Source: Buxus sempervirens
Taxonomy: Eukaryota; Streptophyta; Magnoliopsida; Buxales; Buxaceae
Direction of reading: 5' to 3'
Length of the DNA: 64,000 nucleotides
Assembly (NCBI GenBank): GCA_947561395.2
Contig: OX387189.1
Coordinates: forward strand, 21,514,329 to 21,578,328
Under the pieces are notes generated by a model. The model was not told the DNA's origin, made no database searches, and worked only from the letters and a program-made list of their open reading frames with translations. Numbering within the stretch: the stretch's first letter is position 1; each line of letters starts with the position of its first letter. Position numbers and translations under genes: made by a program. Of this stretch, positions 4,224 to 48,885 are shown in pieces.

Positions 4224-4356
4224 AACCGCATATACAGTACGGTCCGGCCTTGCCCGCATTTAAATTACGAGCGAGCCGTGACCGTGTAGTTAACACGGGC
4301 GAGCCTAGCCCGTATAACCAATACGGGCGAGCCCAGCCCGTGTAATAAATGCGGTT
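4224..4356 (-). promoter_or_regulatory. 21-bp palindrome cluster, 5 units, leader
   Basis: Five 21-bp units start at 4224, 4252, 4280, 4308 and 4336, an exact 28-bp period. Each has 7-bp inverted arms around a 7-bp centre; unit 4 is GCCCGTA - 7 nt - TACGGGC. Linkers are 7 bp. The equivalent cluster in the full element is at 30,698-30,830. The function is unknown; see findings. Confidence 0.88.
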
Positions 4357-5589
4357 TATGGAGCTCTTTTATGTTTTTCCAGTTTTTACATGATTTGATC
4401 ACTTTGATTACTCATCCAAACATATGGTTCACCCTTGCTAGGCTTCTAAACTATCCCAAAGTGGACTTTGACCTATTTTCAAAAATACATGTTTAGGAAG
4501 GCACATGTTCCCTCCAAATTGACACCATATTCAGGGGTATGGTACCCTTTGGTTGCCTCTTGTATGAACATTGGGTAGGATTGATTCTGAACAGAGTTAA
4601 AAACTCTTCCTATGGGCTACACCAATTTTAGGATACATGCCTATTTAGAACAATTTTATCCCAAACCGATGGACACCATGACACCCCTATGACATGAAAA
4701 TAATGCAAAAGTTAGGGTTACCTTGTTTATCTTCAATACGGCATCCGCATTATGCCTTGGCTTGCGAACCATGCAAACGGCCTTCCCTCAATTACAAACC
4801 CATATCCCTATGTAATTGTGTACTATAGCCAAAAACGTGTATCTCCACCTTCAAGCGTAGGGGTTTTGGGTTTTGGCTTAATGGAAACTTAGAACTCAAG
4901 CCTAGTGATGACCAGGATCGAATCACAGATCCACGTTATCATCACATCATTAGCCCAAAGTTCTAAGGTGAATGTTTTCACTTTCACTTTCCGAAGTATC
5001 GACCTCGTTGCGCCAAGCTACACACATTCGGGTTCAACTTCCTATAGGTTATGGGTAGGCTGTGTAAAAAAATAAAATGTGCACAGTGCATTGTAAAAAT
5101 TGGGTGCATTCACAACGTCCCAAACCCTTGCCACTCTTTTCGTAGCCATGCATATACAAACCAATGCATAATAGGAAAGCATATTTAAAGTAAACAAGTA
5201 AACAAGCAATCCTATAGCACCTAAACATGCTCACAAAAATCACCCAAACATGTAAACATATGATCATGTTATACAACCCGAAAACACATCATGGAGATCA
5301 TGCTGAAAATTAAAACATTCTATTATAAAAATACAGCAAGAAATCAGCATGGTTTAGCAAAACAAACCCCCCTACGCATGTTTCTAGAAACAATCCTATA
5401 AATCAGAATTAAGCATGTTTCTACCCCCATGAATTCTTAAGCAAAAATTCAAATTTAAAACATACTAAACATGCTTAAGAATACAAAATAGCAAGCAAAA
5501 CCATAGAACATATCAAACATGCTAAAAATAGCAAGCAAAACAAAACACCAAAACATGAACAAAAACACCAAAAGGCTGAAATCCTCAAG

Positions 5590-5607
5590 TCCCCATCAGA
5601 GTTGTCA
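5590..5607 (-). other. Mutated primer binding site (tRNA-Arg type)
   Basis: Directly inside the LTR end at 5610 there is a sequence matching the full element's PBS (29,482-29,499) with several transitions. It marks this LTR as the 5' LTR of a minus-strand element. Confidence 0.75.
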
Positions 5608-5609
5608 GT

Positions 5610-7411
5610 TGCGAGACATGGAAAAAATTGATTCAATGACTTCCTAATTATCACACGGGATTGGTTAAAAACACAGAGTCGCCACCATTCTGTTTAGGTG
5701 TGAATGAACACCAAAATATCAAATAAGTACAAAAAGGCAAATTTAGGGTAAAAATAACCTTCTAAAAAAAAACCAAAGATGGGTAAGGGGATTAGGTTAT
5801 GAATAGGGGAAGGTGTTAGGCACCCTTATTCATCCACACAAGGTGGTTGCCAGGCATTGTTCATGTTAAAATAAAGGAAAAAAGGCTTGCTATAACAATC
5901 ATAAAAAATCACAAAAAAGTGTATCGGTTTTTCATACAAATAGCCTGATTGATCCAAAACTTTCAAATATGATCATACTATTCCTAGGGTTTCATGATTA
6001 AAATAAAATTGAGATAAAATCAAATAAAAACAATCTAAAGTGAAAACTTAAAAAATCTGGCTTCAAGTTAAATTCTAGAAATCTAGAAAAATATGATTTT
6101 TATAAAATATTGCAGAATTGAACTTGAATAGTCCAGGACATAGATATAGCCCAAATTTCACATTAAATCAAGAAATCAAAACCAAAAATACCCACGTTGA
6201 TGAAGATCATCAAAAGGGGAGAACTTAGACCGTAGGGTCTTCTCTCAAAAGTGAAAAACGATTCAAAAGCCATCTCATGAAACCCTACAAGTTACTTTCA
6301 GGCTTCTGAATCCAGATCTATCATACTGATCATGATGGATCCAGGATCTTAGCCTAATAACACAAAAATCACGAAAACAGTGCTGTAGGTGCAAAAGTGT
6401 GAAAAATCCAAATTTTACAAAAAAAAGTGGGGATCTCATGCTATAGACATCATGGATTCATAGGATTCATTAAGATTCAATCACAAGATCATTAAAACAT
6501 TAGCAGGATATCCAAAGCAGTCACATCTCACAGATTAGAGCACATGGGGGTCTACCCTACGGATCCACCTGTTCTCTTTTCCCCTAGCTCTCTCTTCACG
6601 TTTTATGGCTAGAGAGGAATCTTGAGGTACTTAGAGATAGGTTTGGGTACACAAGCACAATCAAAGGCTTTATTCTAGAAAAAGGAAAAAAACAGATTAT
6701 AGGGTTCTATTCTAGGGATCCACCTGTTCCCCTTTCCCCTAGCTCTCTCTTCACCTTTTACGGCTAGAGAGGATTCTTGAGGTACTTAGAGATAGGTTTG
6801 GATACACAAGATAAAAGGAGGCCTTATTCTGCAGCATTAGAGAAGATCCTATTATCTCTAGAATTGAAGACAGAAAATAAAAGGGATAAGGGACTTACCT
6901 GGATTAAGCAAGCAAAGCAGCAGGGATTCCTCTATTCTCTTGGAGCTCCTTGGACTTCATAATTTCGTGGCCCTTTGCTTAAGGATCTCACCTCTATTTA
7001 TAAGCAAACCCAAGGGTATGGCTGGTCCAGAGGGATATACCTTGATCCCCCCACATTGGGTTAAAAATAAGGATAATGCCCATCCATGGCCAACAAAGAT
7101 ATTTCAAACAAATAAAAGTGATAATTCGCTTATCTAAAGATATATTGGACTGAAGATAAGGCTCAGAAATCGAGCAAGGATCAAATTCGCACAAATCTCC
7201 TGCGCCCGTATTTACATTGCGGGCAAATGGTGTCCGCATTCTTATTACGGTCACTGCGTGCCCGTATACAAATTTCGGGCACAGTCAGCCCATGGATGCA
7301 ATACGGGCAATGCTTAAATTATTGAATTTCATGCATTTTTGACCTGTTTCAAATCCTAATTAATATTTTCAATTATTTTCTCATTTTGTAGTGCAATTTG
7401 GGATGTCTACA
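5610..7411 (-). mobile_element. 5' LTR of the decayed Tat copy
   Basis: The 1.8-kb LTR runs on the minus strand from TGTAGACATCCC at 7411 to CATGTCTCGCA at 5610. It has a TATA box (minus strand, 6992-7002, TATAAATAGAG) about 200 bp downstream of a four-unit palindrome cluster (7204-7308). Two copies of the conserved TCTCTCT/AGAGAGA-type stem-loop lie near 6,585 and 6,740. A PBS-like GAGTCGCCA on the plus strand lies near 5,680. The base after the right end is host chromovirus sequence; the left partner is missing, so no target duplication can be tested. Confidence 0.88.
7204..7308 (-). promoter_or_regulatory. 21-bp palindrome cluster, 4 units, LTR U3
   Basis: Units start at 7204, 7232, 7260 and 7288, an exact 28-bp period, with 7-bp arms such as GCCCGTA and TGCGGGC and 7-bp linkers. 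The cluster sits about 200 bp upstream of the minus-strand TATA box at 6992-7002, the same place as in the other LTRs of this family. Confidence 0.9.
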
Positions 7412-10885: not shown

Positions 10886-10950
10886 TGTAGCTGGCCTAAG
10901 ATGCCGGTTACACATAAGGGTCAATGTATCCGGCATCTTTAGCCGGCTAC
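10886..10950. promoter_or_regulatory. Palindrome pair inside LTR
   Basis: Two inverted repeats, about 27 bp (10,886-10,912) and 25 bp (10,926-10,950). The second has arms GTATCCGGC and GCCGGCTAC around a 7-nt centre. It is a variant of the 21-bp palindromes elsewhere in the nest, and occupies a position similar to the second cluster (18,085-18,189) of the related solo LTR. Confidence 0.7.
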
Positions 10951-12189
10951 GAACATGACTCTGTTGATCCTACTTGAGTTGCTGGATCAACCTACAGAAG
11001 CTGCTTTTTTGGATTTTTGCTATGGGCTTGGATTCTTAGGCCTCTTGGGGTGTTCTAGGGATTGTGGGGGCTACTGTGTGAGCCCACGTTGGTTCAGGTG
11101 AAAGCCACTTGGCTCTCTTCTTGATGTTTTGAAAATTAAAGGGAGGAGATGGTGGCCAGGGCTTGCCTCCTCCTCTTTTCTGGACCCACTTGATGCACAA
11201 ACAGGGACTCAAGTGTCCCTGTCTTGGGTTCCTTTTTCTTCTAAGCGATCCCCCATTATCCTACATAAAACAGCAAGCGAAGTGGAGCATCCACAAACAT
11301 GCTTCAAGTAAACAAAAACCCAATCCAGCCCCATGGAACATGTGCAAAGGGGGGACTGACTTTTCATGGCCAAAACAGCAACTAAACATGAGTTATGATC
11401 CTAAGTGAACACATGCAAAAGTAAAGAAAAACAAGCATGCTCAAAGCTATGATCCTATCCAAATGAGTAAAGGAACATATATCACCCATCCCTCCTATTA
11501 TAACCATATGCACCCAACTCACACATCTAACTAAAAAGTGTCTAAAGAAGGGAATAGGGGGGATTAAATTGGGATACATTGGAATAAATGGAAGGAACAT
11601 GCTCCTCCATTAAAAGTAAAACGATAGCAATATTAATATCCCTATGGAACAGCAATCCTATGCCACTTAAAACCATGCTTAAGGAACTCTCCTTCTCCTA
11701 AAATACCCATCTTACCTCATGAAAGCAACATCTTTGTGATGGTATATATCAAAACAAAAATAGTGTAAACAAAGGAACAGGCATGAATCTATTATCCTAG
11801 CAGCAAACACATGACATGCACAAAATCCAACATGCTTCAAATCATGTCATCTTTATATATGTGAAACAAGATAAACAAAGTGCTCACCTTGGGGGTTTAG
11901 ACCCCTTTTTGAGTGTGTGGAACTCCTTGAGATGCACGAGCAACTGCTGGAGCAGCACCTCTCCCCCACCAACAGCAACTTCTTTTCTTGGTTGTGAGGA
12001 AATGGAGAAAAAGAAGGAGAAAAGGGGTTGGGTAATGTTTAGGTGGTGTCTTGGGTGATATGGGGGCAATGAGGGGTTGAATGGGAGGTTTTCGGAGCAA
12101 GGACAAAGGGGGAGGAAGAGGTGGAAGCAGCCAAAAAGAAGCCAACCCCGGAAATGGGGCTGCTGTTGCCTTTTTATAGAAAGATTTTT

Positions 12190-12435
12190 GTATCCGGAAT
12201 TTAATGTCGGATACACTATACTTCCTTTGTATCCGGCATATTATGTCGGATACACTGCAGTTCCTTTGTATCCGACATATTATATCGGATACAAGACATA
12301 ATAATTTCGAAAATTAAATGCCACCGCGAATTTGTCGGCGAATCGGCGCGAATCTCGCCGAGCAAATCTTTGTATCTGACATTTGATGTTGGTTATACAC
12401 AAACCTATGTTTATCCGATATATTTGACCGGATAC
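12190..12435 (-). promoter_or_regulatory. Palindrome cluster with 39-bp period, LTR promoter
   Basis: Three 25-bp units start at 12190, 12229 and 12268, an exact 39-bp period. Arms are GTATCCGGC and GTCGGATAC around a 7-nt centre. Two weaker units follow (12,372-12,398 and 12,409-12,435). The cluster lies 12 bp upstream of the minus-strand TATA box at 12,169-12,178. The geometry (7-nt centre, CCG/CGG in the arms) matches the 21-bp units of the other LTRs although the bases differ. Confidence 0.85.
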
Positions 12436-13024
12436 AAATTAAAAAATTACGGATTTGTCCCTCGACTTGACCAATTTGATTGATTCGACTGATTTGACAC
12501 TTTTGGGTATCTGCAGATTGCCCCCTGCGAATTTTGGTTTAAACCCTGGGATATTTTGCATGTTTGGATATTTACGGATTGCCCCTTGAGATATTTTTTT
12601 GTTCCACTCGCCACGTGTGCGGCTTTTTGTCACGTGTGCAGCTTTCTGGGTTTGGCTCGGAAACTTTGACAGCTCATATCTCCTTCATCCGGACTCCGAT
12701 TTGAGCAAACTAAGTTGCGTTGGACTCGTATCAGAGCCCTCTATCCAATGATATAGGGCTAAGCACCTGGTTCGGGGTTCAAAAAAAAGTCAACTTTCAG
12801 CTCACCCTCAAGTTTGACCGGCCCACAGAACCTTCATCCGGACTCCGATTCCAGCAAACTCAGTTGCGTTGGACTCGTGTCAGGATTCTCTATCCATTGA
12901 GATAAAGCAAGGCGGCCAATTATCACTTGATCAAAAGGTCAAATTTCAACCCCTCAGGGTTTGACTTTTCTGCTAGGGTTTTCATTTTTAGCACTTCCAG
13001 GGGTGCAAAAATAAGGTGCTTACA

Positions 13025-18084: not shown

Positions 18085-18189
18085 GCCCATATTTGCTATA
18101 TGGGCGCGCCTTGCCCGTGAATATAATACGGTTCAGGCTTGCCCGTATAATAAATACGGGCATGCCCAAACCGTACTGAGTTTACGGGC
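18085..18189 (-). promoter_or_regulatory. 21-bp palindrome cluster, 4 units, second cluster in solo LTR
   Basis: Units at 18085, 18113, 18141 and 18169, exact 28-bp period with 7-bp linkers. Unit 1 has arms GCCCATA and TATGGGC, unit 3 GCCCGTA and TACGGGC: a paired change that keeps the palindrome. Confidence 0.9.
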
Positions 18190-29414: not shown

Positions 29415-29481
29415 TTGTTTTATATAATCCCGTGTGATGATTAGGAAATCATAAAAATTGATTTTTTCCATGTCTCACAAC

Positions 29482-31680: not shown

Positions 31681-31911
31681 TGGGACCTGTTGGAAGCCCT
31701 AGAATATTCCAACAATTCAGAAAAAAATAGAAAAAAGAAAAAAGAAACAAATAAAGAAAAAATCCAAACTCGTGTTCACCCAGCTTGCACATAGGCATTC
31801 CTAGGCATGTGAATGAGATTAATTGGGCACTGATATTTTTCCTTTATCTTGTGACCAGGTACTAATACACTTGCCATCATAGCTCCTGTAACCAGATCAA
31901 GAGCTCAAGCC

Positions 31912-34986: not shown

Positions 34987-35971
34987 AACCGGTACAGGTC
35001 AAGAAGGTGGTTCACAGAGCAGGGTTAGGGTCCAAGCCAAGGAAATGGAGAAGACAGGGGCAGATAGAAACTATGAAATTCCCTCATATCAGGGAAACTT
35101 TTCCAAAGCTTTCTCACATGATTCAACTGTCTCCTCCTGAGGATCAGTCCAAACCTCCGTACTACAATGTCAACCCATTCCAGAAACCCAAATCCTCAAC
35201 CATACAACCATATGTTCCACCTCCACCTCCACAAGCATCGGGTGGGCCTGGGCCACAGGCAGAACAAGAGTAGGACTTTTCAGAGGACATTGGAACATTC
35301 TTTGCCATGACAGAAGGCAAACAAGAAGAAGTAGCAGAGGAGCTACCCTTTATTGATTGGGCTGCAGTAGAAGTTCCATCTGGGACCAGCCCTACAGGAG
35401 AAGCAGGCAACGCAACTCACCCAGTACTAGTGATTTCTGATGCGGACCCTGAGCTTGAGGAGCAGGCTTGTATCCCTGCCCCAGGTTCTTTTATTCTGAA
35501 TAATTGGGAGGAAACTCCCCTTACTTTTGAAGCCGCGTTTGTTTGGCAAACAGACATGGCTTCCAAAAAAAAACTCCATTAGTGGAATGCCCTTTTCCTG
35601 AAGATTTTAATGAGCCTTCGTCTTCAGGGAAAGATTTTGTAGAAGGCTCTCAAAAAACAAAAAAATATTTTTCAATGTTTTCTAGAAAAGATAAAATTTT
35701 CAAAAAGGTCCAAACCATTTATGAACCATATAAGCAAACGGAATTGGATCAGGATGAGTATGACTTCGACCTTGAGCTCGACTTTGACCTAATGGGGGTG
35801 GAGGAAGAGACCGAGGACGAAGAAGACGACGTTCCAAAAGAAATCACATATCAATTAGAGCGTCATGAAAAGGGGGTCCAACCCAATATTGAAGAGACCA
35901 TATTAATAAACCTAGGGACTAAAGATGACCCAAAAATAGTGAAGATTGGGGTATGTCTATCTGAGGTATAG
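34987..35971 (+). pseudogene. Protease-RT linker region, interrupted
   Basis: Coding-like region linking protease to RT. After the one-base deletion the frame continues as HRAGLGSKPRKWRRQG to a TAG at 35,271, then TEGKQEEVAEELPFIDW to a run of nine A (35,565-35,574) where the frame shifts. The next piece (35,543-35,971) has acidic EEETEDEEDD and LERHEKGVQPNIEET, and ends at a TAG (35,969-35,971) directly before RT. The older Tat fragment retains the LERHEKG motif, so the region is part of the polyprotein. In Ogre elements an intron is known between protease and RT; I cannot tell whether one is used here. Confidence 0.8.
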
Positions 35972-35980
35972 CGGGAAGAA

Positions 35981-38900
35981 ATGATACGATTCTTGGCTGA
36001 TTATGAAGATGTATTTGCATGGTCGTATCGGGATATGCCTGGACTAGACACAGACATGGTTGTACATAGGCTACCAATTCTGCCAGATGCTAAGCCAGTT
36101 AAACAGAAACTGAGAAGGTTAAAACCAGAATGGACTTTAAAGGTCAAAGATGAAGTGGTTAAGCAGTTCCAAGCAGGATTCTTGGCGGTTTCCACATACC
36201 CTGAATGGCTTGCAAATATAGTACCAGTGCCAAAGAAAGATGGAAAGGTCAGAATGTGCGTAGATTATAGAGATTTGAATAAGGCAAGTCCAAAGGATGA
36301 TTTTCCACTTCCACACATAGACATCTTGGTGGATAACACCGCTGTACATAGTTTGTTCTCATTCATGGACGGCTTTTCTGGTTATAATCAAATCAAGATG
36401 GCAAAGGAGGATCAGGAGAAAACGGCTTTCATTACACCTTGGGGTACCTTCCACTACACTGTCATGCCATTTGGACTTAAGAACGCTGGGGCAACCTACC
36501 AGAGGGCCATGACAGCCTTATTCCATGATATGATCCATAAGGAGATGGAGGTTTATGTGGATGATATGATAGCCAAATCCTGTGAAGAAGAAGACCACTT
36601 GATCAATTTGAAGAAGGTGTTTGACCGGCTCAGGAAATATATTCTAAGGCTTAACCCTGCAAAATGTGTCTTTGGGGCTACATCAGGAAAGTTATTGGGC
36701 TTTATAGTAAGCAGGAAGGGAATTGAGATTGACCCAGCTAAAGCCAGAGCAATCATTGAAATGCCATCACCTAGAACGGAGAAGGAAGTTCGTGGTTTTC
36801 TTGGAAGAATTCAGTACATAAGCCGGTTCATAGCACAGCTCACCACTATCTGTGAACCAATTTTCAAACTTCTTAGAAAGAATAACCCGACAGTATGGAA
36901 TGATGATTGCCAAGAAGCCTTTGACACAATAAAGGAGTATTTATTGAACCCACCTATACTAGTACCACCAACTCCAGGAAGACCATTGATTTTATACTTG
37001 TCTGTTTTAGAGACGTCAATGGGGTGTGTCTTAGGACAGCATGACGATACAGGCAGAAAGGAGAGGGCGATTTACTACCTGAGTAAGAAATTTACAGAAT
37101 ATGAAGCAAAATATTCCCCTCTAGAAAAGACTTGTTGTGCTTTAGTGTGGGAAACTCAGAGACTAAGGCACTATTTCCTTAGTCATTCCACCTTACTGAT
37201 ATCTCGAATGGACCCTTTGAAGTATCTATTTGAGAAACCAGCTTTAACTGGCAGAACAGCAAAGTGGCAGTTGTTACTCTCTGAATTTGACCTCACCTAT
37301 ATCACACAGAAGGCCATTAAGGGTCAAGCCATAGCTGATCACTTAGCTGCACACCCTTTACCAGAATACCAACCCTTAAAGACCAACTTCCCTGATGAGG
37401 CAATCCTGTTTGCTGAAGAGGAAGAAGGTGAAAGCTCATGACAAATGTTTTTTGATGGGGCCGCCAATATGAATGGAAATGGAATAGGGGCTGTTTTGAT
37501 CAAGCCAGATGGGGCACATATCCCAATCGCAGTAAAACTAAGGTTCCAATGCACAAACAATATAGCAGAATATGAAGCATGCATAATTGGGTTGCAAGCT
37601 GCCTTAGACCATGAAGTAGAGGAACTTGACGTATATGGAGATTCGAGTCTTATCATCTTCCAAACAACTGGTGAATGGAAAACCAAGGATCGCAAATTGA
37701 TCCCCTATCACCAGTATTTGGAAGAAATAAGCACCAGGTTTACTCGAATTTCCTTCAATTATATGCCAAGGGCCAAAAACCAGTTTGCGGATGCTCTAGC
37801 AACATTGGCTTCAATGGTCAGCATGCCAGAAGGTGTTGATATTAGACCACTGGAAATTGAAGTCAGAGATGAGCCAGCCTATTGCCTTGTTCTAGAAGAA
37901 ACCCCAGAAGAAGAAGTACCATGGTTTCAAGACATTAAGAACTTCCTAAATGATCGGAGTTTGCCAGAAAATGTCACCTCTACAGAGAAAAGAACAATAC
38001 AAAGGTTGGCAGGACAGTTCTTATTAAGTGGTGGGCAGTTGTACAAAAGATCACATAACGATATCCTACTTAGATGTGTTGCCAAAACCGAATCAGAAAG
38101 GCTAATTGATACGGTACATGGAGGAGTTTGTGGACCCCATATGAACGGGCATATGCTTGCCAAGAAGATTCTGCGATTGGGATATTACTGGTCGACTATG
38201 GAACACGATTGCTATATACACGTCAAAAGGTGTCATTTATGCCAAGTGTACGCGGATAACAAGAATGCACCCCCAAGTGAATTACACAGCATGACATTCC
38301 CGTGGCCCTTCTCCATGTGGGGTATAGATGTCATTGGAATGATCTCTCCAAAGGCATCAAATGGACACAGGTTTATACTTGTAGCAATCGATTATTTTAC
38401 CAAGTGGGTAGAAGCGGCTTCTTATGCAAACATTACGAGTAGCCATGTTCTTAAGTTTTTGAAGCACAACATCATTTGTCGCTACGGTTTGCCAAGTGCC
38501 ATAGTAACAGACAATGCTTCAAACCTTAAGAACAAAGACATGAGGAAGATGTGTGAACAATTCCAGATTACCCACCACAAGTCAGCTCCTTACAGACCAA
38601 AGATGAATGGGGCAGTGGAAGCAGCAAATAAGAACATAAAGAAGATCATTCAGAAGATGGTAGTGAGTTTTAAAGATTGGCATGAAATGCTGCCACTTGC
38701 TCTACATGCTTACAGAACCTCGATTCTGACTTCTACAGGGGCAACCCCATATTCCCTAGTCTATGGAATGGAAGCAGTTTTACCAGTGGAAGTGGAAATA
38801 CCTTCACTAAGAGTGCTAATGGAAGCTGAATTAGAAGAAGCTGAATGGATACAGTCTAGGCATGATCAACTCAATTTAATAGAAGAAAAGCGTTTGAAGG

Positions 38901-39169
38901 CACTTAGTCATGGCCAATTGTATCGGAAGAGGATGGCCAGGGCTTACAATAAAAAGGTGAAGCCCAGAACTTTCCAAGAAGGAAATTTGGTATTAAAGAA
39001 GATTTTACCCTTTTTGGAAGATCCTCGTGGAAAATTCAAACCAAATTGGGAAGGGCCTTATATAGTTAAGAAGGTCCTATCAGGGGGTGCTCTCATCTTA
39101 ACAGAAATGGATGGGAAGGATTTTCCTGAGCCAATTAACTCTGATACAGTAAAGAGATATTTTCCATGA
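35981..39169 (+). CDS. pol: Reverse transcriptase, two RNases H, integrase (one TGA)
   Basis: Copies element RNA into DNA and inserts it. One frame from 35,981 to 39,169, broken only by TGA at 37,439-37,441, a likely Trp codon. RT: VPVPKKDGKVRMCVDYRDLN, MPFGLKNAGATYQR and catalytic YVDD near residue 192. First RNase H to about 37,400 (EKTCCALVWETQRLRHY). Second, archaeal-type RNase H from 37,445 (MFFDGAANMNGNGIGAVLI, NNIAEYEACIIGLQAA), a marker of the Tat lineage. Integrase: HHCC finger about 38,118-38,240 (CHLCQVY); catalytic Asp 38,327, Asp 38,510 and Glu 38,618, spacing D-35-E; C-terminal domain ending DTVKRYFP. No chromodomain. All catalytic residues inspected are present. Confidence 0.95.
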
Positions 39170-40080
39170 ATGAATATTACTAGGAAAGGATCTGAGGCCA
39201 TTTTTCCTTATATCCCAAAATTTACATCCCTAGTCAAGTCAATTTGAGCCTGTTCGTCTTTTTGTTAAACCTAAACTGGACCTACAGTCTTATACTGGGG
39301 CAAAGCCAATAAGGGCAAAGCCAATAGGGGCAAAAGAAAAAAAATGAGAAAAAAAGAGAGAAAAAAATATATATATAAGGGCAAATGAAAGCCAAATACA
39401 AAAGAAGAGGAATGGGATCGAATTCACCATGACTGTAAGTCCAGTTGACCCATTTTTTCACACTTAGAAAATTTTGAGCCTTTAATACCTTTTCTTTCAT
39501 AAACCGAGCTTAGCCTTTGTTTCATCCTATTATTAAGCCCTCGGTGATTTTAGTATATTCATTCAACTTTCAGAGTAAGATTGGTGATGACGGAATACAG
39601 AAGCCAACCCTAGTGAAAACCGTAATTGGCGCTAGGGGGAAAAGGGGCAAAAAAAAAAAAGAATCAAGGGTTAAGTTGATCATGTGGTCTAAAATCAGCA
39701 TGAGCACTGGAAATTGAGCAGATTAGCAAGGTCAGTCATGAAGGAAATGCCATTTGGGGATGACTCTAAAGGTCGCGGGTAGACAGATTTGGTCTCTCCC
39801 TATTGCTTGGATTACCCTTTTCATTATTCAACCTGATTTTAATTCCTTTAATTATATGTGATTAAGTGTTTTGGATCAGCTTTCAAAAAAAAAAAAAAAC
39901 TATACTTTGGCCAGTGATGAGAAATCAAATACTTTTTCATAAAACTTCTGTTTTTATAAGCATCTGAGAATTCTGAGGCCAATAATATAAAACCTATTTT
40001 GGAATTAAATATTTTGTCTTTCCACTAATGGAGTTTGCTTTTGTATAAAAGTATGAAAAAAAATATAAGAATAAAAGAAT
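39170..40080. other. Non-coding spacer between integrase and antisense gene 1
   Basis: No coding signal. A 14-bp direct repeat, GGGCAAAGCCAATA, occurs twice near 39,298-39,326, and short A-runs are frequent. It would hold the 3' untranslated sequence and polyadenylation signals of antisense gene 1, none of which I can pinpoint. Confidence 0.6.
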
Positions 40081-41980
40081 CTAATCTCTACTCCCCAGCT
40101 GCTCCTCAAGCTCCCTAATCCTAGCTGCCTGAGTTGCAATGATTCCAGAAGCACCCTCTGCATCAGGATCACTCAAAAAGGAGATGATCTCATCAGAAAG
40201 AGAATGCTTGATCTTCAACGCCCTAAGGTCAACCAGGGAATCCTGATATTTCTTCCGCATCACGCGGACTTCAAAGCGACGCGCCTGTCGTTGTTCCTCA
40301 AGTTTATTTTCCAGGGCAAGGCGGCAAGACTTCTGCTCTTCAAGTTGCCTCTCCAAATTAATACCCTTTATCCTGAGCTCTTGTGCTTCTCGTACCCAAA
40401 TTTGTTGAAGCCGCTTGTGGGTTGCTCTTTCAGACTCCAGGATGTCCTCATAAGAAGGGGGAAGAACCGCAGGAGGATCCTCTGGTACTGGGGCATGACT
40501 CTGCACCTGCTCTTTGATCCAGAATTGATAATCCTTCACATGGGACTCCGAAAAGATAGGACCCCGCAGAAAACGGACGTAGGACCACTCTTTCATTAAT
40601 TGAGCAGTTAGCCCCATGGAGGCTGGTGTAAGTGGCCCTAAAAGCTTTTCATATCCAGTAGGGATCATAATCCCCTGGATCGCTCTAAACTGCCGAAGAA
40701 CCCTCAAAGGAAGATAGAGAACAGCAGATTTCAAGCCTGCTAGGACCAGAAAGTTTTTATCTCTAAAGCTGATCACTGTCTTTGGAGTAGGCTGATAAGT
40801 GCCAGGCCATCTCACTTGATCATCCTGGAGAGTACCCAAGAAAGTGAACCAGCCTTGCTTGCCACCTTGGATGTTAGGACATCCCCTATTGCTCATCAGA
40901 ACAGGAACTTTCAATCTTGGAAAGAAGCGGCGAGTTATTTCTTCAACCTGGCTAAGATGGTCAAGCAACCAAAGCTGCAGAAAAAGGGAGTATTCCAATT
41001 TATTTCCAAAAAGAAAAAAAAAGAGAAAAAAGAAAAAGAAAGAAAAAATGAAAAAAAAAATGAAGAAAAAAAAAAGGAATAAAAAGAAAAAGAGAAGAAG
41101 AAGAAAAAGAAAAGAAAAAAAGAAAAGAAGAAGAAGAAAAAGAAAAGAAAAAAAAGAAGAGAAGAAGAAAAAAAAAAGAGAAAAAAAAAAGAAAAGAAAA
41201 AAAATATATATGTATATTTTTTACCTGTAGGATAGGGGCGCAGGCAAGGAAGCGTTTCTTCTTCCTGAAATAGCAATCAGTAAGGGCCTGGTATATCTCT
41301 GCTAGGATCATAGGGGCCAACCTCTCACGTTCCCTAACCTGGCAGATAACTGAGATGAGAGCCAAGTCAACCTGGTCATCACCCCGTGGAAAAAGCAACT
41401 GATTGACCACTACCAGGGTCAATGCATTAAACCTAGCGTCCTTGTCTTCACTCCTCAGAAGTTTTTCAGTCAAAAAGGTCTTGGACAAGGTCAATAGTGC
41501 ATCAGAATTTCCTAGGTCCTTCTTCCCTATACCCAAGAAATTGGAAGCCTCTTTTTTATAACTAAGCTTTAGGGGTGGGTTCACAACTTTTTCAGAAAAT
41601 CTTAGGCCAAGGATGGTTTCAATCTCTTCTATGGTAGGAGTCATCTCTTTATCATCAAAGCGGAAGAGATTCAGTTCAGGTACCCAGTGTCCAATCAAAG
41701 CTTCAATGATTTCCCACTTAAAGGGAATTTTAGGGAGGTGTAGGATATGCCCTAAGTGGATGGAATCCCAGCAAATCTCCTCATCAAGGGTCATGGAGTT
41801 AACCCATCTATCATAGAAGGAGTCCACAATGTTGTACCTGGTGAGATTAGGAGGTTTTGATCTAACAGGTTGTCTTGCAGGAGGAGATTCAACGGCAGGA
41901 GAAAGCGGCGTAGGGAAAGCCATGGAAGCGCTAAAGAAGCCAAGGAAAGCGAGAAAAGACGTGCTCAGGGAGTTTTCCAA
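40081..41980 (-). CDS. Antisense gene 1: DUF7745/plant-mobile-domain-like, coiled coil
   Basis: Two-exon gene on the strand opposite pol. Exon 1 41,980-41,225 (252 codons), intron 40,975-41,224 (250 bp, donor CAG|GTAAAA, acceptor TTTCTGCAG|C), exon 2 40,974-40,081; phase 0 on both sides, product about 549 residues. N-terminal half: NIVDSFYDRW, LHLPKIPFKWEIIEALI, ELNLFRFDDKEMTPTIEEIE, a pattern I associate with DUF7745 and plant mobile domain proteins. After the junction: LWLLDHLSQVEE and LYLPLRVLRQF. The last 120 residues are a Lys/Glu/Arg-rich coiled coil ending ARIRELEEQL. No stops or frameshifts once spliced. A TATA box (42,014-42,023) and a five-unit palindrome cluster lie just upstream. 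Function unknown; related antisense ORFs are known from Tat/Ogre elements. Confidence 0.85.
40998..41215 (-). other. Polypyrimidine-rich intron core of antisense gene 1
   Basis: About 200 bp of almost pure A/G on the plus strand (runs of AAAAAG and AAGAAG), hence T/C-rich on the minus strand. It lies wholly inside the inferred intron and would act as an extreme polypyrimidine tract before the TTTCTGCAG acceptor. Lys-rich or Phe-rich open frames across it are low-complexity artefacts. Confidence 0.8.
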
Positions 41981-42013
41981 TTATTAAAAGTGTCATAATG
42001 ACGTTCCCTATGA

Positions 42014-42023
42014 GTTTATATAG
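42014..42023 (-). promoter_or_regulatory. TATA box of antisense gene 1
   Basis: On the minus strand CTATATAAAC, 34 bp before the ATG at 41,980 and 23 bp downstream of the palindrome cluster at 42,046-42,178. The short distance leaves almost no 5' untranslated region if start is about 30 bp downstream. Confidence 0.7.
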
Positions 42024-42045
42024 AAAAAATCGTTAAGGCAGTAAA

Positions 42046-42178
42046 ATCCGTAATTGTAATACGGGCATAGTGCGCCCGTATAAAGAATACGGACACACTG
42101 TGACCGGGAAAAATTTACGGGCACAGTGCGCCCGTATAACAATTACGGGCTCGGCTTGCTCGTAGTCTAAGTACGGTT
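42046..42178 (-). promoter_or_regulatory. 21-bp palindrome cluster, 5 units, antisense gene 1 promoter
   Basis: Units at 42046, 42074, 42102, 42130 and 42158, exact 28-bp period with 7-bp linkers. Unit 4 has GCCCGTA and TACGGGC arms. It sits between the 3' end of antisense gene 2 and the TATA box of antisense gene 1. Confidence 0.93.
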
Positions 42179-42395
42179 CCTTTCCGGAAAAATGCAAAAA
42201 TGGGCAGTTTTAATTTCTTTGTTTCCCTAAGCTTCACCTGTCCCTGTTTTAACATTCATCAGGTAATAAATACTGAAAATAAAGAAGAAAAGAACACAAA
42301 TGGAAATAAATCAAACTTCTTTTATAGATATATGAATGTTTACATCACTTTTGCCAAAAAATACAAGTGTACATGGAAGAATCCTAATCTAATGT

Positions 42396-45256
42396 CTATG
42401 CAGGTCCGCCCCTACGGCCACGGCCTCGTCCTCTGCCTCGACCACGGCCTGAAGATCGCCTGCGCTCAAAGACATGCCGCACAACATTGCGGGCTGTGCT
42501 ACGCGTCATCCTGCTCAAAACAGACTGAATATCATGCCACATATATAAAGGCACAAGGCCAGCAGTGGGATGATCAGGAGGGACGTACCCTGAAGTATCT
42601 ACATCAGAATCAGTACGGGAAGAATCCGCTGAAGTATCAACAGCAGCATGCGTCTCCTCAACATCCTCCATAGCAGGACTAGTAGGAGCAGAGGTCTCAG
42701 GTACATCAGCATCAGGACCAGGCTCTACAGGATCAGCTGTAGTCTCCTCCATCACCACAGCATCCACGGTAGGCTCAACCACAGCAGCGTCCATAGCCGA
42801 ATCCATATCTACATCAGCAGACGCAGCAGGAGCAGTCTCAGCTACTGGGGCAGACTCTGGCACATCCTCAGTAGCAGGTACAATATCAGCCTCGACCTCG
42901 GGCTCTGCTGCAAGAACCTCTACTGGACTGGGAGACGTCATGAACTCCACCCGTGCCACAGAAAATACCTCATCCCGAAAATGCATGGGCACGGGTGAAG
43001 CAGGTGAAGAAGGGCCGGCTGTGTCCTCCTGAAACTAAGATAAGGAATTTCAGTCAGAACAAGACAAACTAATGCGAGAGTTTTTTTTATGGAAATAAAA
43101 GAAGAAGTTAACCTGAGTATAAGATGGACCCGCCTGGTCCTGTGCATCAGATGGACCTTCCTGGCCCTGTGCTCTGGCTAGCTGCCCCCGGAGGTCTGAA
43201 ATGGTGATATAGAGGGCATCTCGCTCGGCGATCGCAGCATCTCGCTGGCGCTCTAGATCAGCATATCGAGACCGGATCTCTGCCAACTGGGCCTCCAGAA
43301 ATAGAAAAGAAAGAAGTCAGAAAAATGCCAAGTTCAGATGAAATGAAAATAGAAAGGTGAAAAGGAAGAAGGCATACCGTAGTGTCATAGGCCCTAATCA
43401 CTACCCCTCCAATCTCAGTGACTCCGCCACGGACAGGCATAGGTGGCATGAGGCACCCAACAGAAGCTCGCCTGAACCAGGCATCATAGTCACCCTCCTC
43501 CAATAATGTCTCTGCCTCAGTCCAATCTAGGAACTGGGCAGGATCAACAGGCATAGGAAGGTAGGAAGGAGTAGTATCTGGCGGGATGGCAGGAATCCGT
43601 GGCTCTCCCACATGCTGAAAGAAGAAGCGCTCGCCGCAGTACCAAATGCTGCCCAGCTGACCAATAAAGAACTGGTATCTCTGTCGTCTCTGGTCAGGGA
43701 CAAATGCATCATCTCTGGCTGCCTGCAGAGCCAGCACCTCATGAATGTCCTCCATCCTGGGGACAAATAGCTGAAAAACAGAACAGGACATCAAATATGT
43801 GACTCAAGAAGAAAAGAAAAGAACAAAGTAGAGAAATTAAAGAAGATTACCTCAGACCAGTACAACCTGTCCAAGTGGGCCCGGGCGGACCTGGGACGAC
43901 TCTTTTCAGAGTCATGCTCTACATGACACCATCTACGTGCCATAGGATACGTCTCCTCAGGCATCGTAGAGGTAGGACGGAAATAGGGTATATAAACCCT
44001 AGCAAAAAACTGCAAAAAAAAAAAAAAAGAGTTAGAGGAATTGAAAAGGAGAGATAAGAAAAAGAGAAAGAGAAGAGAAATAGATATTTCACCTGCAGAA
44101 AAGGCAGAAAAATCTGCACCCAACTCCAGCCCCTCTAGAAGTAGAGAGGCCGCTCACCGATCGGCGAAGGCCGGCCAAAATAGTACCAAAAATAAGCGGG
44201 CCCCATGCATATCTCCTCGCCCGCTGAAGATCTCCCAGTAAGCTCAGAAAATGAGGACTGACTGAGGTCTTGTCCTCTGGGAAGAAGCAGGATCCCATCA
44301 TATACAGAAAAAGGAATCGGAAGGCATATGGGAAAACGTGGTCACTGGCAGCAAGCTGACCAAACTGCCTCCTACTGAAAGTCTCTCTCAACCATGTCAG
44401 AGACAATCTCGCTCTCCCCTGATCCCATGCCTCAGGAGGCAGCACGATATATCCAAGATAAGCTGCAACCTCATCAGCCTCTGGCATCGCCATCTCGGGA
44501 ATAACATCACCGATCATCCTAATCCCGGTGATGAGCGTGAAATCAGAAGGCCGGATCCCAATCTCAATATCTGGAAAGTGGAAGCTCAATGTCTCTGGGA
44601 AAAACCTCTCCAGCAATGCGGCAATGAGGGCCCGATCCAAGCGTACGTCCAGGATGGTGATAAACATACCAAATCCATACAAGCCTAGCTCCCGACGGAA
44701 GGCCGAACTGCAAGCTCCCAAAAATCTAATAAAGCTAGCCCAGCTCCCTCTATAGTGGGACATAGCAAACTCCAAAGGGATATCCGCCCTAATACACGCT
44801 GAGGGATGAGTCCTCAAGCCATGCAAAAGATCGGTATCCATAATCTGGGCAGCCACCTCCTCAGGGATCTCAACCCTGGTCCTGGCCTCATCTCTGCCAC
44901 GGCCCCCTCTGAGGCCTCCTCTATGGCCCTCATCATGGCCTCCATCTCTGCCTCCAGCTCTGCGCCTGCTACGGCTCCTATCTCTGCCCAAAGCCTCAAC
45001 AGCCGGCTAAAAGAAAATAATTGAAAGAAGGAAAGAATAAGAAGGATGTATTTTGTAAAAGAATCTTGAATTCAGAATTATTAGAATATACCTCTGGGGT
45101 CGCCTCACGCGAATCCCCAGAAGGAAGATCCGGGACATCAGAATCTGAATCCCTCTCGGCCCTCGAAGACGAGGCCACATCAGCATGATCCCGCCTAACC
45201 CTCGAAGAGGAAGGCTCATCTGCAGGATCCCGGGAAGCTGATCGAAGACGGGCCAT
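42396..45256 (-). CDS. Antisense gene 2: plant mobile domain protein, six exons
   Basis: Six exons on the minus strand: 45,256-45,092; 45,006-44,093; 44,009-43,851; 43,770-43,378; 43,286 (or 43,292)-43,113; 43,034-42,396. All junctions are GT-AG. Exons 1, 3, 4, 5 and 6 are in phase 0. About 815 codons. Exon 1 is Ser/Arg/Asp-rich; exon 2 starts with an Arg/Gly-rich stretch, then a plant mobile domain (aminotransferase-like, transposase-derived): IGIRPSDFTLITGIRMIGD, TWLRETFSRRQFGQL, YMMGSCFFPEDK, ARRYAWGPLIFGTILAGLRR. Exon 5 is a coiled coil; exon 6 has an acidic Ala/Val/Glu-rich region and an RG-rich tail. A run of five T near 44,108-44,112 puts the end of exon 2 out of frame with exon 3, a probable one-base indel. 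Role unknown. Confidence 0.82.
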
Positions 45257-46602
45257 CTACGGTTCAAATCAGGGAGATATTTAATTATTCTTGTTAAAAT
45301 TTTATTGTTTGATCTTTATTCTAACCAAGATTAACTAATTTGCAGGAAAAGGAAAATTGGGAAAAGAAAGTGCTTCAAGAACTCCCGACCAAAATCAGAA
45401 ATCAACTAAGGAGTTTATTTTTGAGAAATTTTATTGTTCTTTGCTTTAATGTATAGGAAGTTCAGGCTTCCTGTATATGAAAAAAAAAAAAAAAAAGAAG
45501 AGAAGAAAAAGAATTATGTATATTGATCTTAATTTTCTCTTTTGGGATTTTCTATAAAGACCTAACCATTCAACTTTATTTGGTTTCAGGATAGAAGTTT
45601 AAGTCTATTTGCATGGATATTGGAATTGCAGAGCCGAAAAGCCATTATTCATCTCAAGATAAGAGACTTCAATAAGGGGCTTGCCATTCGAAGACAAGAA
45701 CCTCAGAATTTCAGTCAAGAATCAGAAAATTTGCAAACAACAGTTCAGAGGTGTCAATTAACAAGGAAAAAGAACCAAATATCAGCTCAAAAACAGAAAA
45801 TCTATAGCTTGAGATAATCATCTCTAATTCAAGGAGCAGAAGAAATAAAAGTGTCATTCAGGACATGTCATTCACAAGGAAAAGCGGCATATTGAACAAA
45901 CCAATGTCGGGGAGTTTAATCATTCCAGAATTCAAGAGCATAGAAATAGTGAATCAAATCAGACCAATATAGACAAAGTAAGCATTTGGGTTAATCAAGA
46001 GCAAAGAAAGAAAAAAAAAAGAGAGAATTGGATTCTACTGTCACATGTATTGCTCATAAGAGAAGCTTACAGAAATTTCGGCCAACCAGAAAGATCACAT
46101 GAAAAGCAAATCAGGCCAAGCAAAGATTCAGGTCTAAGAAACAAATCAGAAATTTTTTGTCGAATGCATATCCCCCAACAGTGAGCATGGAATTGGGGAT
46201 TATTCTCAAACCATAAACAGTCAAACTCGTGCATAAACTAGACTTGATGCTATTATTGAAAAGGGGATTTCGGCCACTTACTTAGTACAGTCGAAATGGA
46301 GGAATCAAACGAGGAGCTCTTACTTTACCAAAGATCAAAGGAAAATCCACGGCCGATTGAGTAAATGAAAACACAAAGGATGCTCGAATGTGAGAGTCGC
46401 CGGATTCAATGGAGGATATGAGAACCACCGGAATGAACAGTGGTCGCCGGAAAATGAGAAGTTCGCCGGAGGTAGAAGTCGTGCACCTTCGGAGATTTGA
46501 AGAAGAAGAGAAAACCGTAAGAGAAGATACGGTCGCAGAGAAAATAGGGCAGAGTGCGAGCAGAAGAAGAAAGGTCGCGGCCGCGGTTAAGAAGAGGGCA
46601 AA
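45257..46602 (-). promoter_or_regulatory. Probable 5' untranslated exon and intron of antisense gene 2
   Basis: On the minus strand, sequence just below the palindrome cluster (46,600 to about 46,300) looks like a plant 5' untranslated leader, CT-rich and ending in donor-like TTTG|GTAAAG or CTAA|GTAAGTG. The ATG at 45,256 is preceded at once by CCGTAG, a possible acceptor. I infer a leader intron. No clear TATA box was found and the open frame 46,282-46,698 is not convincing as protein. Confidence 0.4.
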
Positions 46603-46706
46603 ATCCGTAAAATCAGTACGGGCATCAGACGCCCGTGAAAGCAATACGGTCCTGTCCGCCAGTGAAAAACCTACGGGCAACATATGTCCGTGATACAAAT
46701 ACGGGC
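46603..46706 (-). promoter_or_regulatory. 21-bp palindrome cluster, 4 units, upstream of antisense gene 2
   Basis: Units near 46603, 46631, 46658 and 46686, 27-28-bp period, 6-7-bp linkers. Unit 1 has ATCCGTA and TACGGGC arms. The third unit is weakened (GCCAGTG left arm). It lies about 1.35 kb upstream of the antisense gene 2 ATG and 355 bp before the 3' LTR. Confidence 0.85.
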
Positions 46707-47045
46707 GAAGCCAAAAATAGCATATTTTTGTTATTTTCTCACAATTTTCAAGAGAATAATGTTTATATTAGTTGTAAGTTGCAAGGATTGCCACCATACC
46801 CACTTTCGTTTAAAAAATTTTGTCTCAAATCTCACTTCATAGCCCACAAGTGCTCAGTGAGAGGAGAGAGGAGGATTTGGCCCTTAAGCTGAGGGACTTC
46901 TTAGCAAATCTTCCACAATCAATTTTTTTCTTTTTCAAAAATCATCCATTTAATCCTTGCAAAGTGCAATTGATTAGACAAAAATCTCAGAAAGTGCAAT
47001 TGGTGGGTCTTTTTGCTCTCTGCTTGTAATTGGTTCCAATTACCA

Positions 47046-47061
47046 GCAAAGAGGGGGCAGC
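47046..47061 (+). other. Polypurine tract
   Basis: GCAAAGAGGGGGCAGC directly before the 3' LTR; the primer for plus-strand DNA synthesis. A related tract flanks the LTR at 13,024. Confidence 0.85.
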
Positions 47062-48885
47062 TGTAGACACCCCAAATTGCACTACAAAATGAGAAAATAA
47101 TAAAAACATGTAATTAGAGCTTAAAACAGGTCAAAAATGCCTAAAAATTGAATAAACAGGCTTTGCCCGTATTTCATTCACGGGCCAGTCACGCCCGAAA
47201 ATTCTCTACGGTCAGGCACGCCCGTGGAAAAAATACGGTCACCGTTGGACCGTAGTGCATTTACGGTCACTAAAGACACGTGCGATTTTTGTCCTTCTCT
47301 CGATTTCTGAGCTTTATCTTTAGTCCAATATAGCTTTAAATGAGTGAATTATGTATTTTATTCGCTGAAGCCACCTTGGTTGGCTATGGATGGGCATTAT
47401 CCCCAATTTTCACTATATCCTGAGGATCAGGATATATCCTTCTAGACCAGCCATGCCCCTGGGTGTGTCTATAAATAGAGGCTCTCTCCTCTAGCTAAGG
47501 GCGACGAAATTTTGAGTCCAAGGAATTCTAAGAAGCTCCAAGAGAAGAGAAAGAACTCCTGCTGCCTGCCTGCTCAATCCAGGTAAGTCCCCTATCCCTT
47601 TTTATTTTCTGTCTTCAATTCTAGAAGTAATAGGATCATCTCTATTGCTGTAGAATAAGGCCATATTTATATTTGTCTTCCTAAACTTGTCTCTAAGTAC
47701 CTCAAGAGTCTCTCTAGCCGTAAAACGTGAAGAGAGAACTAGGGGAAAGGGGAACAGGTGGATCCCTAGAATAGAACCCCATATCTGTTTTTTTCTTTTT
47801 TTTCATAGAATAAGGCCTGTGATTGTGGTTGTGTAACCAAACCTATCTCCAAGTACCTCAAGAGTCTCTCTAGCCGTAAAACGTGAAGAGAGAACTAGGG
47901 GAAAAGAGAACAGGTGGATCCGTAGGGTAGACCCCCATGTGCTCAAATCTGTGAGATATGGCTATTTTGAATATCTTGATCATGTTTTAATGCTTTTTAT
48001 GATATATCTGAATGAATTACATGAATCTATGATGTTTATAGCATGAGATCCTCTCTTTTTGCCAAAATTTGGATTTTTGCCACTTTTGCACCTACAGCAC
48101 TGTTTTCTTGGATTTTTGTGGTTTTAGGCTAAGATCTTGGATTTATCATGATCAATATGGTAGATCTGGATCCAGAAGCCTGAAAGTGAATTCTACGGTT
48201 TCATGATATGGTTTTTAAATTGTTTTTCACTATTGAGAGAAGACCCTACGATCTAAATTCTCCCATTTTGGTGTTTTTCATCAATGTGGGTATTTCTGGT
48301 TTTTATTTTCTGATTTAATGTGAAATTTGGGCTTTATCTATGTCCTGGACTATTCAAGTTCAATTTTGAAATATTTTATAAAAATCATATTTTTCTAGAT
48401 TTCTAGAATTTTGACTTGAAGCCAGATTTTTGGATTTTTCACTTTAAATTGATTTTATTTGATTTTATCTCAATTTTTGTTTTGATCATGAAACCCTAGG
48501 AATGGTATGATCATATTTGATAGTTCTGGATCAATCAGAATATTCATATGAAAAAAACCATATATTTTTGTCGTCTTTTTTGTGATTTTGTGTGATTTTT
48601 ATAGCAAGCTTTTTCTTTTATTTTAACATAAACAAATACCTGGCAACCACCTTGTGTGGATGAATAGGGGTGCCTAACACCTTCCCTTGTTCATAACTTA
48701 ATCCCCTTACCCATCTCTGGTTGTTTTTTTTAGGAGGGATATTTTGCCCTAAAATTTGCCTTTTGTGCTTATTTAATATTTTGGTGTCCATTCACACCTA
48801 AATTGAATGGTGGCGACTCTTTGTTTTATATAATCCCGTGTGATGATTAGGAAATCATAAAAATTGATTTTTTCCATGTCTCACA
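47062..48885 (+). mobile_element. 3' LTR of the full element
   Basis: 1,824 bp, nearly identical to the 5' LTR. I counted 17 differences, mostly transitions, including one single-base indel. It has its own palindrome cluster (47,165-47,268), TATA box (47,470-47,480), stem-loop pair and PBS-like decamer. Followed by the target duplication AGGAT. Confidence 0.96.
47165..47268 (+). promoter_or_regulatory. 21-bp palindrome cluster, 4 units, 3' LTR U3
   Basis: Four units, linkers of 6-7 bp, last unit 47,248-47,268 with GACCGTA/TACGGTC arms. TATA box 202 bp downstream. Because U3 of the 3' LTR is copied into the 3' end of the genomic RNA, these repeats would be present as RNA hairpins. Confidence 0.9.

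What the first reader, a model, noticed from the sequence alone, without database searches (positions are those of the whole stretch)
4224..47268. A shared family of 21-bp palindromes, 7-7-7 geometry and 28-bp period, in LTRs, leader and antisense promoters
Thirteen clusters, about 57 units: 4224, 7204, 10886, 12190, 15491, 18085, 19001, 26582, 27759, 30698, 42046, 46603, 47165. Each typical unit is 21 bp: 7-bp arm, 7-nt centre, inverted 7-bp arm. In nine clusters units are joined by 7-bp (rarely 6-bp) linkers, so half-sites alternate in direction every 14 bp. Arm bases differ between subfamilies but change on both sides (GCCCGTA/TACGGGC, GTCCGCA/TGCGGAC, AACCGCA/TGCGGTT, GTATCCGGC/GTCGGATAC), while the centres drift. 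Such paired change means the symmetry itself is selected. Distance to the downstream TATA box is consistent: about 180-212 bp in the 1.8-kb LTR family, 12-23 bp in the others. I know of no described element like this.
Basis: partly seen in the sequence, partly recalled or inferred. Interest (0 to 1): 0.95.

Follow-up and report, generated by a model that had tools for sequence, protein, structure and literature searches.

The report
Paired-site arrays in Ogre retrotransposon promoters
Several plant jumping genes in this stretch share arrays of short mirrored DNA sites with rigid spacing, mostly in front of their promoters, probably docking sites for a paired regulatory protein that the jumping genes may encode themselves.

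Summary
In 64 kb, CCG-N11-CGG occurs 47 times against 1.1 expected, and all 47 lie in the 13 reported clusters, 2.9% of the window. Spacings of 10 and 12 give 1 and 6. Ten clusters have a 27/28-bp period.

The arrays sit in LTRs, leaders and antisense promoters of nested Ty3/gypsy elements. The most complete one (E1, 27657-48885, 5-bp target duplication) is an Ogre-type Tat element with two antisense plant-mobile-domain (PMD) genes, each with an array in front.

Arm matching within units is no better than in within-cluster shuffles (251/315 against 254.0, p 0.79), although compensation of 30% of mismatches would have been detected. This speaks against hairpins or cruciforms. Selection shows otherwise: between E1 and its relative E2, CCG cores changed at 1/54 positions, the rest of the arrays at 54/183, flanks at 406/3051.

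Best reading: sites for a dimeric protein that co-regulates all promoters of one element, most likely its own PMD protein (in logic like VANC or foamy-virus Tas). Binding by PMD is inference; a host factor is the main rival. No plant genome could be searched.

The parts
27657..48885 (+). E1: Ogre-type Tat element with both LTRs and TSD AGGAT
   Evidence: LTRs 27657-29480 / 47062-48886 99.07% identical; TSD; gag, RT, RNase H, second RNase H, INT by Pfam
27759..27862 (+). Array, E1 5' LTR U3: 4 units, steps 28/27/28 bp
   Evidence: TATA 202 bp downstream
47165..47268 (+). Array, E1 3' LTR (LTR duplicate of 27759)
30698..30830 (+). Array, E1 leader: 5 units (4 exact), no TATA within 300 bp
42046..42178 (-). 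Array, promoter of antisense PMD1: 5 units (4 exact), TATA at 24 bp
40084..41980 (-). PMD1 gene region: ORF 41003-41980 (ATG 41923) matches PF24924 DUF7745 5.5e-21 and PF10536 4.9e-12; ORF 40084-41220 only a sub-threshold PF24924 match (0.026) and a long predicted helix; intron between them inferred
46603..46706 (-). Array, upstream of antisense PMD2: 4 units (3 exact), no TATA within 300 bp; 5'UTR intron inferred
42399..45256 (-). PMD2 gene region: PF10536 2.7e-17 in ORF 44092-45006; first exon with ATG at 45256 inferred
780..7411 (-). E2: partial relative of E1 (83%), LTR 5609-7411, leader, gag
7204..7308 (-). Array, E2 LTR U3: 4 units (3 exact), TATA at 202 bp
4224..4356 (-). Array, E2 leader: 5 units (4 exact)
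15387..17225 (+). LTR_C, third relative of the E1 LTR
15491..15595 (+). Array, LTR_C: 4 units (3 exact), half-sites GTCCGCA/GACCGCA, TATA at 181 bp
24549..26963 (-). LTR_B: starts TGTAGACACCCC like E1, end related to E1 LTR
26582..26855 (-). Array, LTR_B: 5 exact units plus one N12, half-site AACCGCA, irregular spacing, TATA at 202 bp
12190..12440 (-). Array, LTR_A_L: 4 exact units, half-site ATCCGRY, 39-bp steps, TATA at 12 bp
19001..19215 (-). Array, LTR_A_R: 5 units of GCCCGTA type, TATA at 16 bp, in a homologous LTR
10886..10962 (-). Second array in LTR_A_L, about 1.2 kb downstream of its TATA; 1 exact unit
18085..18189 (-). Second array in LTR_A_R, about 0.8 kb downstream of its TATA; 4 units (3 exact)

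Best explanation
Each unit is a two-fold symmetric DNA site (typically RNCCGYR-N7-YRCGGNY; CCG-N11-CGG nearly exact) bound by a protein dimer, and the 4-5 unit arrays are multi-dimer regulatory modules. One Ogre element uses the same module at its LTR promoter, its leader and the promoters of its two antisense PMD genes, forming a self-contained regulon. The most likely binder is the element's own PMD protein, which would bind the array to activate or un-silence all the element's promoters, including its own. Related LTRs, some with no visible PMD gene, carry the same geometry with drifted half-sites, as expected if they follow or borrow the factor. Shown: geometry, positions, core conservation, antisense PMD genes behind two arrays. 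Inferred: protein binding, dimer, PMD as the binder, activation or anti-silencing.
For: CCG-N11-CGG 47 against 1.1, all in the 13 clusters. Unit spacing is rigid while linkers vary (7 or 6 bp, longer or irregular in LTR_A_L and LTR_B), as for a dimer site. Core changed at 1/54 positions between E1 and E2, rest of array 54/183 (p 2e-6), flank 406/3051 (p 0.007); E1 against LTR_C core 1/24, flank 581/1643 (p 8e-4); E2 against LTR_C core 2/24, flank 452/1497. Core CpG kept 34/35 but other array CpG only 6/15 (E1-E2), so this is not regional CpG protection. CpG o/e 1.37 in arrays, 0.21-0.30 in the rest of three LTRs, 0.40 in the E1 interior. Arrays lie 12-24 bp from a TATA box at PMD1 and in two LTRs. 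Both antisense genes carry PMD above the Pfam cut-off. The four distinct E1 arrays share T at position 6 (28/30 half-sites of exact units) against 2/16 in LTR_B plus LTR_C (p 5e-8), although their centres are not significantly alike (p 0.065). The second PMD1 ORF has a predicted 93-residue helix, pLDDT above 90 over about residues 201-250, compatible with a coiled coil. PMD is reported in 57% of Ogre elements (PMC6317226, passage).
Against: No binding or expression data. PMD is not established as a DNA-binding domain; for MAIN/MAIL1 direct recognition of a promoter motif is only a hypothesis in print (PMC7156037, passages). The PMD2 model failed (mean pLDDT 40.8) and the PMD1 model is confident only in its helix (mean 51.7). 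The leader arrays, 10886 and 18085 have no TATA beside them. Position 6 sharing among E1 arrays could come from common descent, and half-sites are not independent. E2 has no PMD region in the window, so co-divergence of protein and site could not be tested. No relative of the E1 PMD proteins is found near the LTR_A LTRs (tblastn).
Confidence: 0.5

Rival explanations
1. The arrays are sites for a dimeric host transcription factor that recognises CCG/CGG half-sites, for example a LOB-domain (LBD) protein or another family, recruited by many elements to obtain expression.
For: Same promoter-proximal anatomy in several families, some without a visible PMD gene. LOB domains bind GCGGCG and dimerise to discriminate palindromic DNA (PMC10118128, passages); TGCGGAC/TGCGGTT half-sites contain GCGG.
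Against: Half-site flanks are element-specific and coherent across four E1 arrays (T6 28/30 against 2/16), whereas one host factor should hold them constant. 28 of 30 E1 half-sites read ACGG, and GCGGCG occurs in none of the 13 clusters. No CCG-N11-CGG in the window outside the clusters, though this window says little about host genes.
Confidence: 0.33
2. The units act as RNA hairpins or DNA cruciforms (7-bp stem, 7-nt loop), for example to make small RNAs or as packaging signals.
For: Inverted arms, and arrays in the leader, which should be transcribed.
Against: Arm complementarity within a unit is no better than between units of one cluster (p 0.79, power shown); mismatches read in the presumed sense of transcription are 27 A.C, 16 G.U, 21 other; eight arrays lie upstream of a TATA box.
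Confidence: 0.04
3. The arrays are non-functional tandem repeats that expanded recently; similarity is by descent.
For: Tandem form; units in 19001 are near copies; non-core array positions diverge faster than flanks (p 4e-8).
Against: Cores are kept while the rest of the array and flanks change; homologous LTR_A LTRs carry different half-site types in the same place next to the TATA box; centres of the four E1 arrays are not significantly alike.
Confidence: 0.06
4. The sites bind a protein whose role is not transcription, such as integrase, a chromatin insulator or a nucleosome factor.
For: Arrays also in leaders and downstream of TATA in LTR_A.
Against: Placement upstream of TATA boxes at 8 of 13 clusters and before both PMD genes is promoter-like.
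Confidence: 0.07

Closest known systems
VANC proteins and their target motifs in Arabidopsis VANDAL transposons (PMC5735166, passages; PMC10398659, abstract)
   Same: Element-encoded protein, short motif accumulated in arrays in non-coding parts of its own element family, motif changes between families, fast divergence of the array background.
   Different: DNA transposon; 9-bp motif arrayed in one orientation, not inverted pairs at fixed N11; a different protein (no PMD reported in what I read); binding is proven there and inferred here.
Foamy virus Tas with LTR promoter and internal promoter (PMC8670036, abstract start in the listing)
   Same: Element-encoded transactivator needed at both the LTR promoter and an internal promoter; same logic as proposed.
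   Different: Vertebrate retrovirus with an unrelated protein (recalled).
Antisense accessory ORFs of Tat-lineage retrotransposons: Grande gene23, Retand TRP28, Ogre PMD (PMC7264820, parts 1-2 of 3; PMC11963269, abstract and passages; PMC6317226, passages)
   [quoted passage not shown] E1 belongs here.
   Different: None of the text I saw describes inverted-site arrays shared by LTR and antisense promoters.
MAIN/MAIL1 and the DOWN motif (PMC7156037, passages)
   Same: PMD proteins linked to a promoter DNA motif and to transposon silencing.
   Different: Direct binding untested; host proteins; a different motif context.
LOB-domain transcription factors (PMC10118128, passages)
   Same: Dimer with a coiled-coil element, GCGG-type core, palindrome discrimination.
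   Different: Host family; its GCGGCG site is absent from the 13 clusters.

Membership tests
Ogre clade of Tat (Ty3/gypsy) | Second RNase H between RT-RNase H and integrase (Ogre and Retand, PMC6317226 passage) | tested here: met
   RT_RNaseH in 35972-37438, then RVT_3 (5.1e-21) before rve in 37442-39166
Ogre clade of Tat (Ty3/gypsy) | Plant mobile domain in an extra ORF (57% of Ogre, PMC6317226 passage) | tested here: met
   Two antisense ORFs with PF10536, one also PF24924
Ogre clade of Tat (Ty3/gypsy) | PBS complementary to tRNA-Arg (PMC9289625 passage) | tested here: inconclusive
   TGGCGACTCTGCTGGGGA follows the 5' LTR; the match to tRNA-Arg is recalled, not computed
Ogre clade of Tat (Ty3/gypsy) | RT phylogeny within Ogre | not tested
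   No plant RT set was at hand
VANC-type anti-silencing system | Element-encoded protein binds the arrayed motif | not testable with these tools
   Needs DAP-seq or gel shift
VANC-type anti-silencing system | Motifs arrayed in non-coding parts of the element, motif differing between families | tested here: met
VANC-type anti-silencing system | Motifs in one orientation, VANDAL DNA transposon host | tested here: not met
   Inverted half-sites every 14 bp in LTR retrotransposons; not filed as VANC
LOB-domain (LBD) target sites | GCGGCG site | tested here: not met
   GCGGCG/CGCCGC: 3 in the window, 0 inside the 13 clusters
RNA hairpin element | Compensatory pairing within units | tested here: not met
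   within-cluster shuffle p 0.79, 45 units

The most novel reading that the evidence does not exclude
Plant mobile domain proteins encoded antisense in Ogre retrotransposons are sequence-specific dimeric DNA-binding regulators. Each Ogre lineage carries its own code of CCG-N11-CGG arrays at every promoter, the half-site flanks co-evolve with the protein, and related LTRs without a PMD gene carry arrays of the same code. This would give the PMD family, including host MAIN/MAIL1, a molecular activity.
Probability: 0.4. Interest if true: 0.88.

Novelty: new variant of a known kind. Interest (0 to 1): 0.74.

Why it matters
What the antisense genes of Tat and Ogre elements do is open in the papers I saw (PMC7264820, parts 1-2; PMC6317226, passages), and PMD is called a domain of unknown function (PMC9289625, section 12). 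The arrays give a concrete candidate target: a rigid inverted site, repeated, at the LTR and antisense promoters of the element that encodes the protein. A binding assay can settle it. If right, it would be a retrotransposon parallel of the VANC system with a different protein and an inverted-site grammar.

Tried and rejected
Hairpin/cruciform reading: rejected (no compensation, no wobble bias in the presumed sense of transcription). Read on the + strand of the window without regard to transcription there were 28 G.T against 15 A.C; the sense-corrected count is the relevant one. Regional CpG protection as sole cause: rejected, because CpG outside cores in the same arrays is mostly lost (6/15 kept). 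Arrays as duplicates of each other within E1: centres not significantly alike (p 0.065, borderline). Gal4-type reading (the linkers give CGG-N11-CCG; Gal4 site recalled): to my knowledge plants lack that family; noted only as geometry.

Searches without result: PMD1 N-terminal part in the large protein collection (579 candidates, none at E 0.001). PMD2 ORF against PDB sequences (0 at E 1). PMD2 ORF in viral contigs (one stretch, not a relative). Six-half-site pattern in viral contigs: 17 stretches; 15 are 57-73% G+C, L009 is 54% and L010 39%; L009, L010 and L017 are tandem repeats of other sequence; all judged chance or unrelated by eye. Two-unit CCGTA pattern in genome contigs: 0. PMD2 fold unusable; no fold search was run. 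LTR_A internal minus-strand ORFs 13545-13850 and 13857-14168 (two of several): no Pfam family at E 0.01.

Literature: ten searches answered. Nothing in the titles and abstract starts listed pointed to inverted CCG-N11-CGG arrays in plant LTR retrotransposons; the searches aimed at palindromes in LTR U3 or Ogre promoters are. The library holds only open papers, so this is weak evidence of absence.

Dropped rows: the 47165 cluster was left out of the covariation test as the LTR duplicate of 27759. 12190 and 10886 were not in the 45-unit set because of their different half-site, nor was the N12 unit of 26582. The CpG o/e of arrays used 11 stretches, without 10886, 12190 and 26582. The position 6 count used exact units only, so one-mismatch units were left out. 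Two weak matrix hits outside clusters (10126, 17962) were treated as chance.
Full report
What is there. The window is plant-type DNA with nested Ty3/gypsy elements; the species was not identified. E1 (27657-48885, + strand) has both LTRs, 99.07% identical, a 5-bp duplication AGGAT at both sides, gag in 32116-34983, RT and RNase H in 35972-37438, second RNase H and integrase in 37442-39166. Between integrase and 3' LTR lie two antisense genes. PMD1: ORF 41003-41980 matches PF24924 at 5.5e-21 and PF10536 at 4.9e-12; ORF 40084-41220 has only a sub-threshold PF24924 match (0.026). PMD2: ORF 44092-45006 matches PF10536 at 2.7e-17. Second RNase H position and PMD place E1 in the Ogre clade of Tat; Neumann et al. 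report PMD in 57% of Ogre elements (PMC6317226, passages). E2 (780-7411, minus) is an 83% relative with LTR, leader and gag. LTR_C (15387-17225), LTR_B (24549-26963, minus) and the LTR_A pair (minus; starts near 13025 and 19779) are further LTRs.

The motif. Counting CCG-Nk-CGG for k from 0 to 45, k=11 gives 47 against 1.1 expected, with 1 at k=10 and 6 at k=12; k=19 gives 10 against 1.4 (7 of those 10 outside clusters), and k=39 gives 27, which fits the next unit of the 28-bp arrays. CGG-N11-CCG, the linker, gives 29 against 1.4. So in the regular arrays half-sites alternate every 14 bp. All 47 are inside the 13 reported clusters. The half-site matrix is R-N-CCG-Y-R. Unit length is nearly exact, with one N12 exception in LTR_B, while linkers are 7 or 6 bp in the regular arrays, longer in LTR_A_L, irregular in LTR_B. 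This hierarchy points to the unit as the binding entity. The 28- and 39-bp steps differ by about one helical turn (arithmetic, inference).

With 45 units (47165, 10886, 12190 and the N12 unit left out), arms agree at 251 of 315 positions. Dealing right arms among all units gives 230.8 (p 0.0008), but dealing them within clusters gives 254.0 (p 0.79). In the 31 units of the E1, E2 and LTR_C clusters it is 168 against 171.1 (p 0.82). Simulated compensation of 30% of the mismatches is found in 40 of 40 runs, of 20% in 26 of 40, of 10% in 3 of 40. So bases change per cluster, not per unit. Mismatches in the presumed sense of transcription are 27 A.C, 16 G.U and 21 other, not what an RNA stem would favour. 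Intramolecular pairing is therefore unlikely to be the function.

Selection. Between E1 and E2 (LTR plus leader) CCG cores differ at 1/54 positions, other array positions at 54/183, flanks at 406/3051. Core against rest of array p 2e-6; core against flank p 0.007; rest of array against flank p 4e-8 in the faster direction. Between E1 and LTR_C the core differs at 1/24 (flank 581/1643), between E2 and LTR_C at 2/24 (flank 452/1497); these comparisons share sequences and are not independent. CpG o/e is 1.37 in arrays (11 stretches), 0.30, 0.27 and 0.21 in the remaining E1, E2 and LTR_C LTRs, 0.40 in the E1 interior. Core CpG is kept 34/35, other CpG in the same arrays 6/15, flank 46/70 (E1-E2). 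Retention is thus tied to the core and not to the region. A caveat: the core was defined on these arrays, and in the LTR comparisons the aligner may favour CCG; the leader comparison (0/30) has no gap in the array.

Position. Arrays start about 100 bp inside the E1, E2, C and B LTRs, with TATA 202, 202, 181 and 202 bp beyond. In LTR_A_L, LTR_A_R and at PMD1 the TATA is 12, 16 and 24 bp away. Five of 13 clusters have no TATAWAW within 300 bp reading away from the array. PMD2 looks TATA-less, with a pyrimidine-rich stretch and an inferred 5'UTR intron before the ATG at 45256. LTR_A_L and LTR_A_R align over their first several hundred bases but carry different half-site types (ATCCGRY, GCCCGTA) in the same place before the TATA box: the geometry is kept while the letters are swapped.

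Who binds. The four distinct arrays of E1 agree on T at position 6 (28 of 30 half-sites of exact units), LTR_B and LTR_C on C (T in 2 of 16; p 5e-8, half-sites taken as independent), although the centres of the E1 arrays are not significantly alike (p 0.065). E2 is mixed (T in 9 of 14, C in 4). Coherence within one element and shift between elements is what an element-specific factor would leave; common descent of the arrays is not excluded. The element's own candidates are PMD1 and PMD2. The second PMD1 ORF is predicted, without an alignment, to hold a 93-residue helix with pLDDT above 90 over about residues 201-250 in a model of mean pLDDT 51.7, compatible with a coiled-coil dimer. The PMD2 model is unusable. 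MAIN and MAIL1, host PMD proteins, are tied to a promoter motif, but direct recognition is unproven (PMC7156037, passages). A host dimer remains the main rival; for LBD proteins (PMC10118128, passages) the published GCGGCG site is absent from all 13 clusters.

Comparison. The logic is that of VANC (PMC5735166, passages) and of foamy virus Tas (PMC8670036, abstract start in the listing). The antisense accessory genes of Tat elements are known, and a regulatory role is suspected (PMC7264820, parts 1 and 2 of 3; PMC11963269, abstract and passages). I found no description of inverted-site arrays shared by LTR and antisense PMD promoters in searches. Verdict: real, selected, new variant of a known kind; the binder is the open point.

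Noticed in passing
3317-4083 and 30960-31670: E2 and E1 leaders carry tandem repeats (33-47 bp) of a second imperfect inverted repeat, CTGAAA...TTTCAG with about 9 nt between; they may cause the excess at other spacers (not tested).
   Followed up: no
9518-9829 and 19777-20106: Two integrase pieces (Integrase_H2C2; SH3_Tf2-1) flank the LTR_A region, perhaps the remains of one older gypsy element with insertions between.
   Followed up: partly
21247-22236 and 27053-27649: RT/RNase H pieces of an older Tat-like element (E3), apparently split by LTR_B and cut by E1.
   Followed up: partly
63183-63989: Part of another minus-strand LTR related to LTR_B (77%); its array, if any, lies beyond the window.
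   Followed up: no
59069-60551: SAM-dependent carboxyl methyltransferase gene pieces (PF03492), probably a host gene outside the elements.
   Followed up: no
10886-10962 and 18085-18189: LTR_A LTRs hold a second array about 1.2 and 0.8 kb downstream of their TATA; role unexplained.
   Followed up: no
41008-41204: Long A-rich low-complexity stretch (T-rich on the coding strand) in the inferred PMD1 intron.
   Followed up: no
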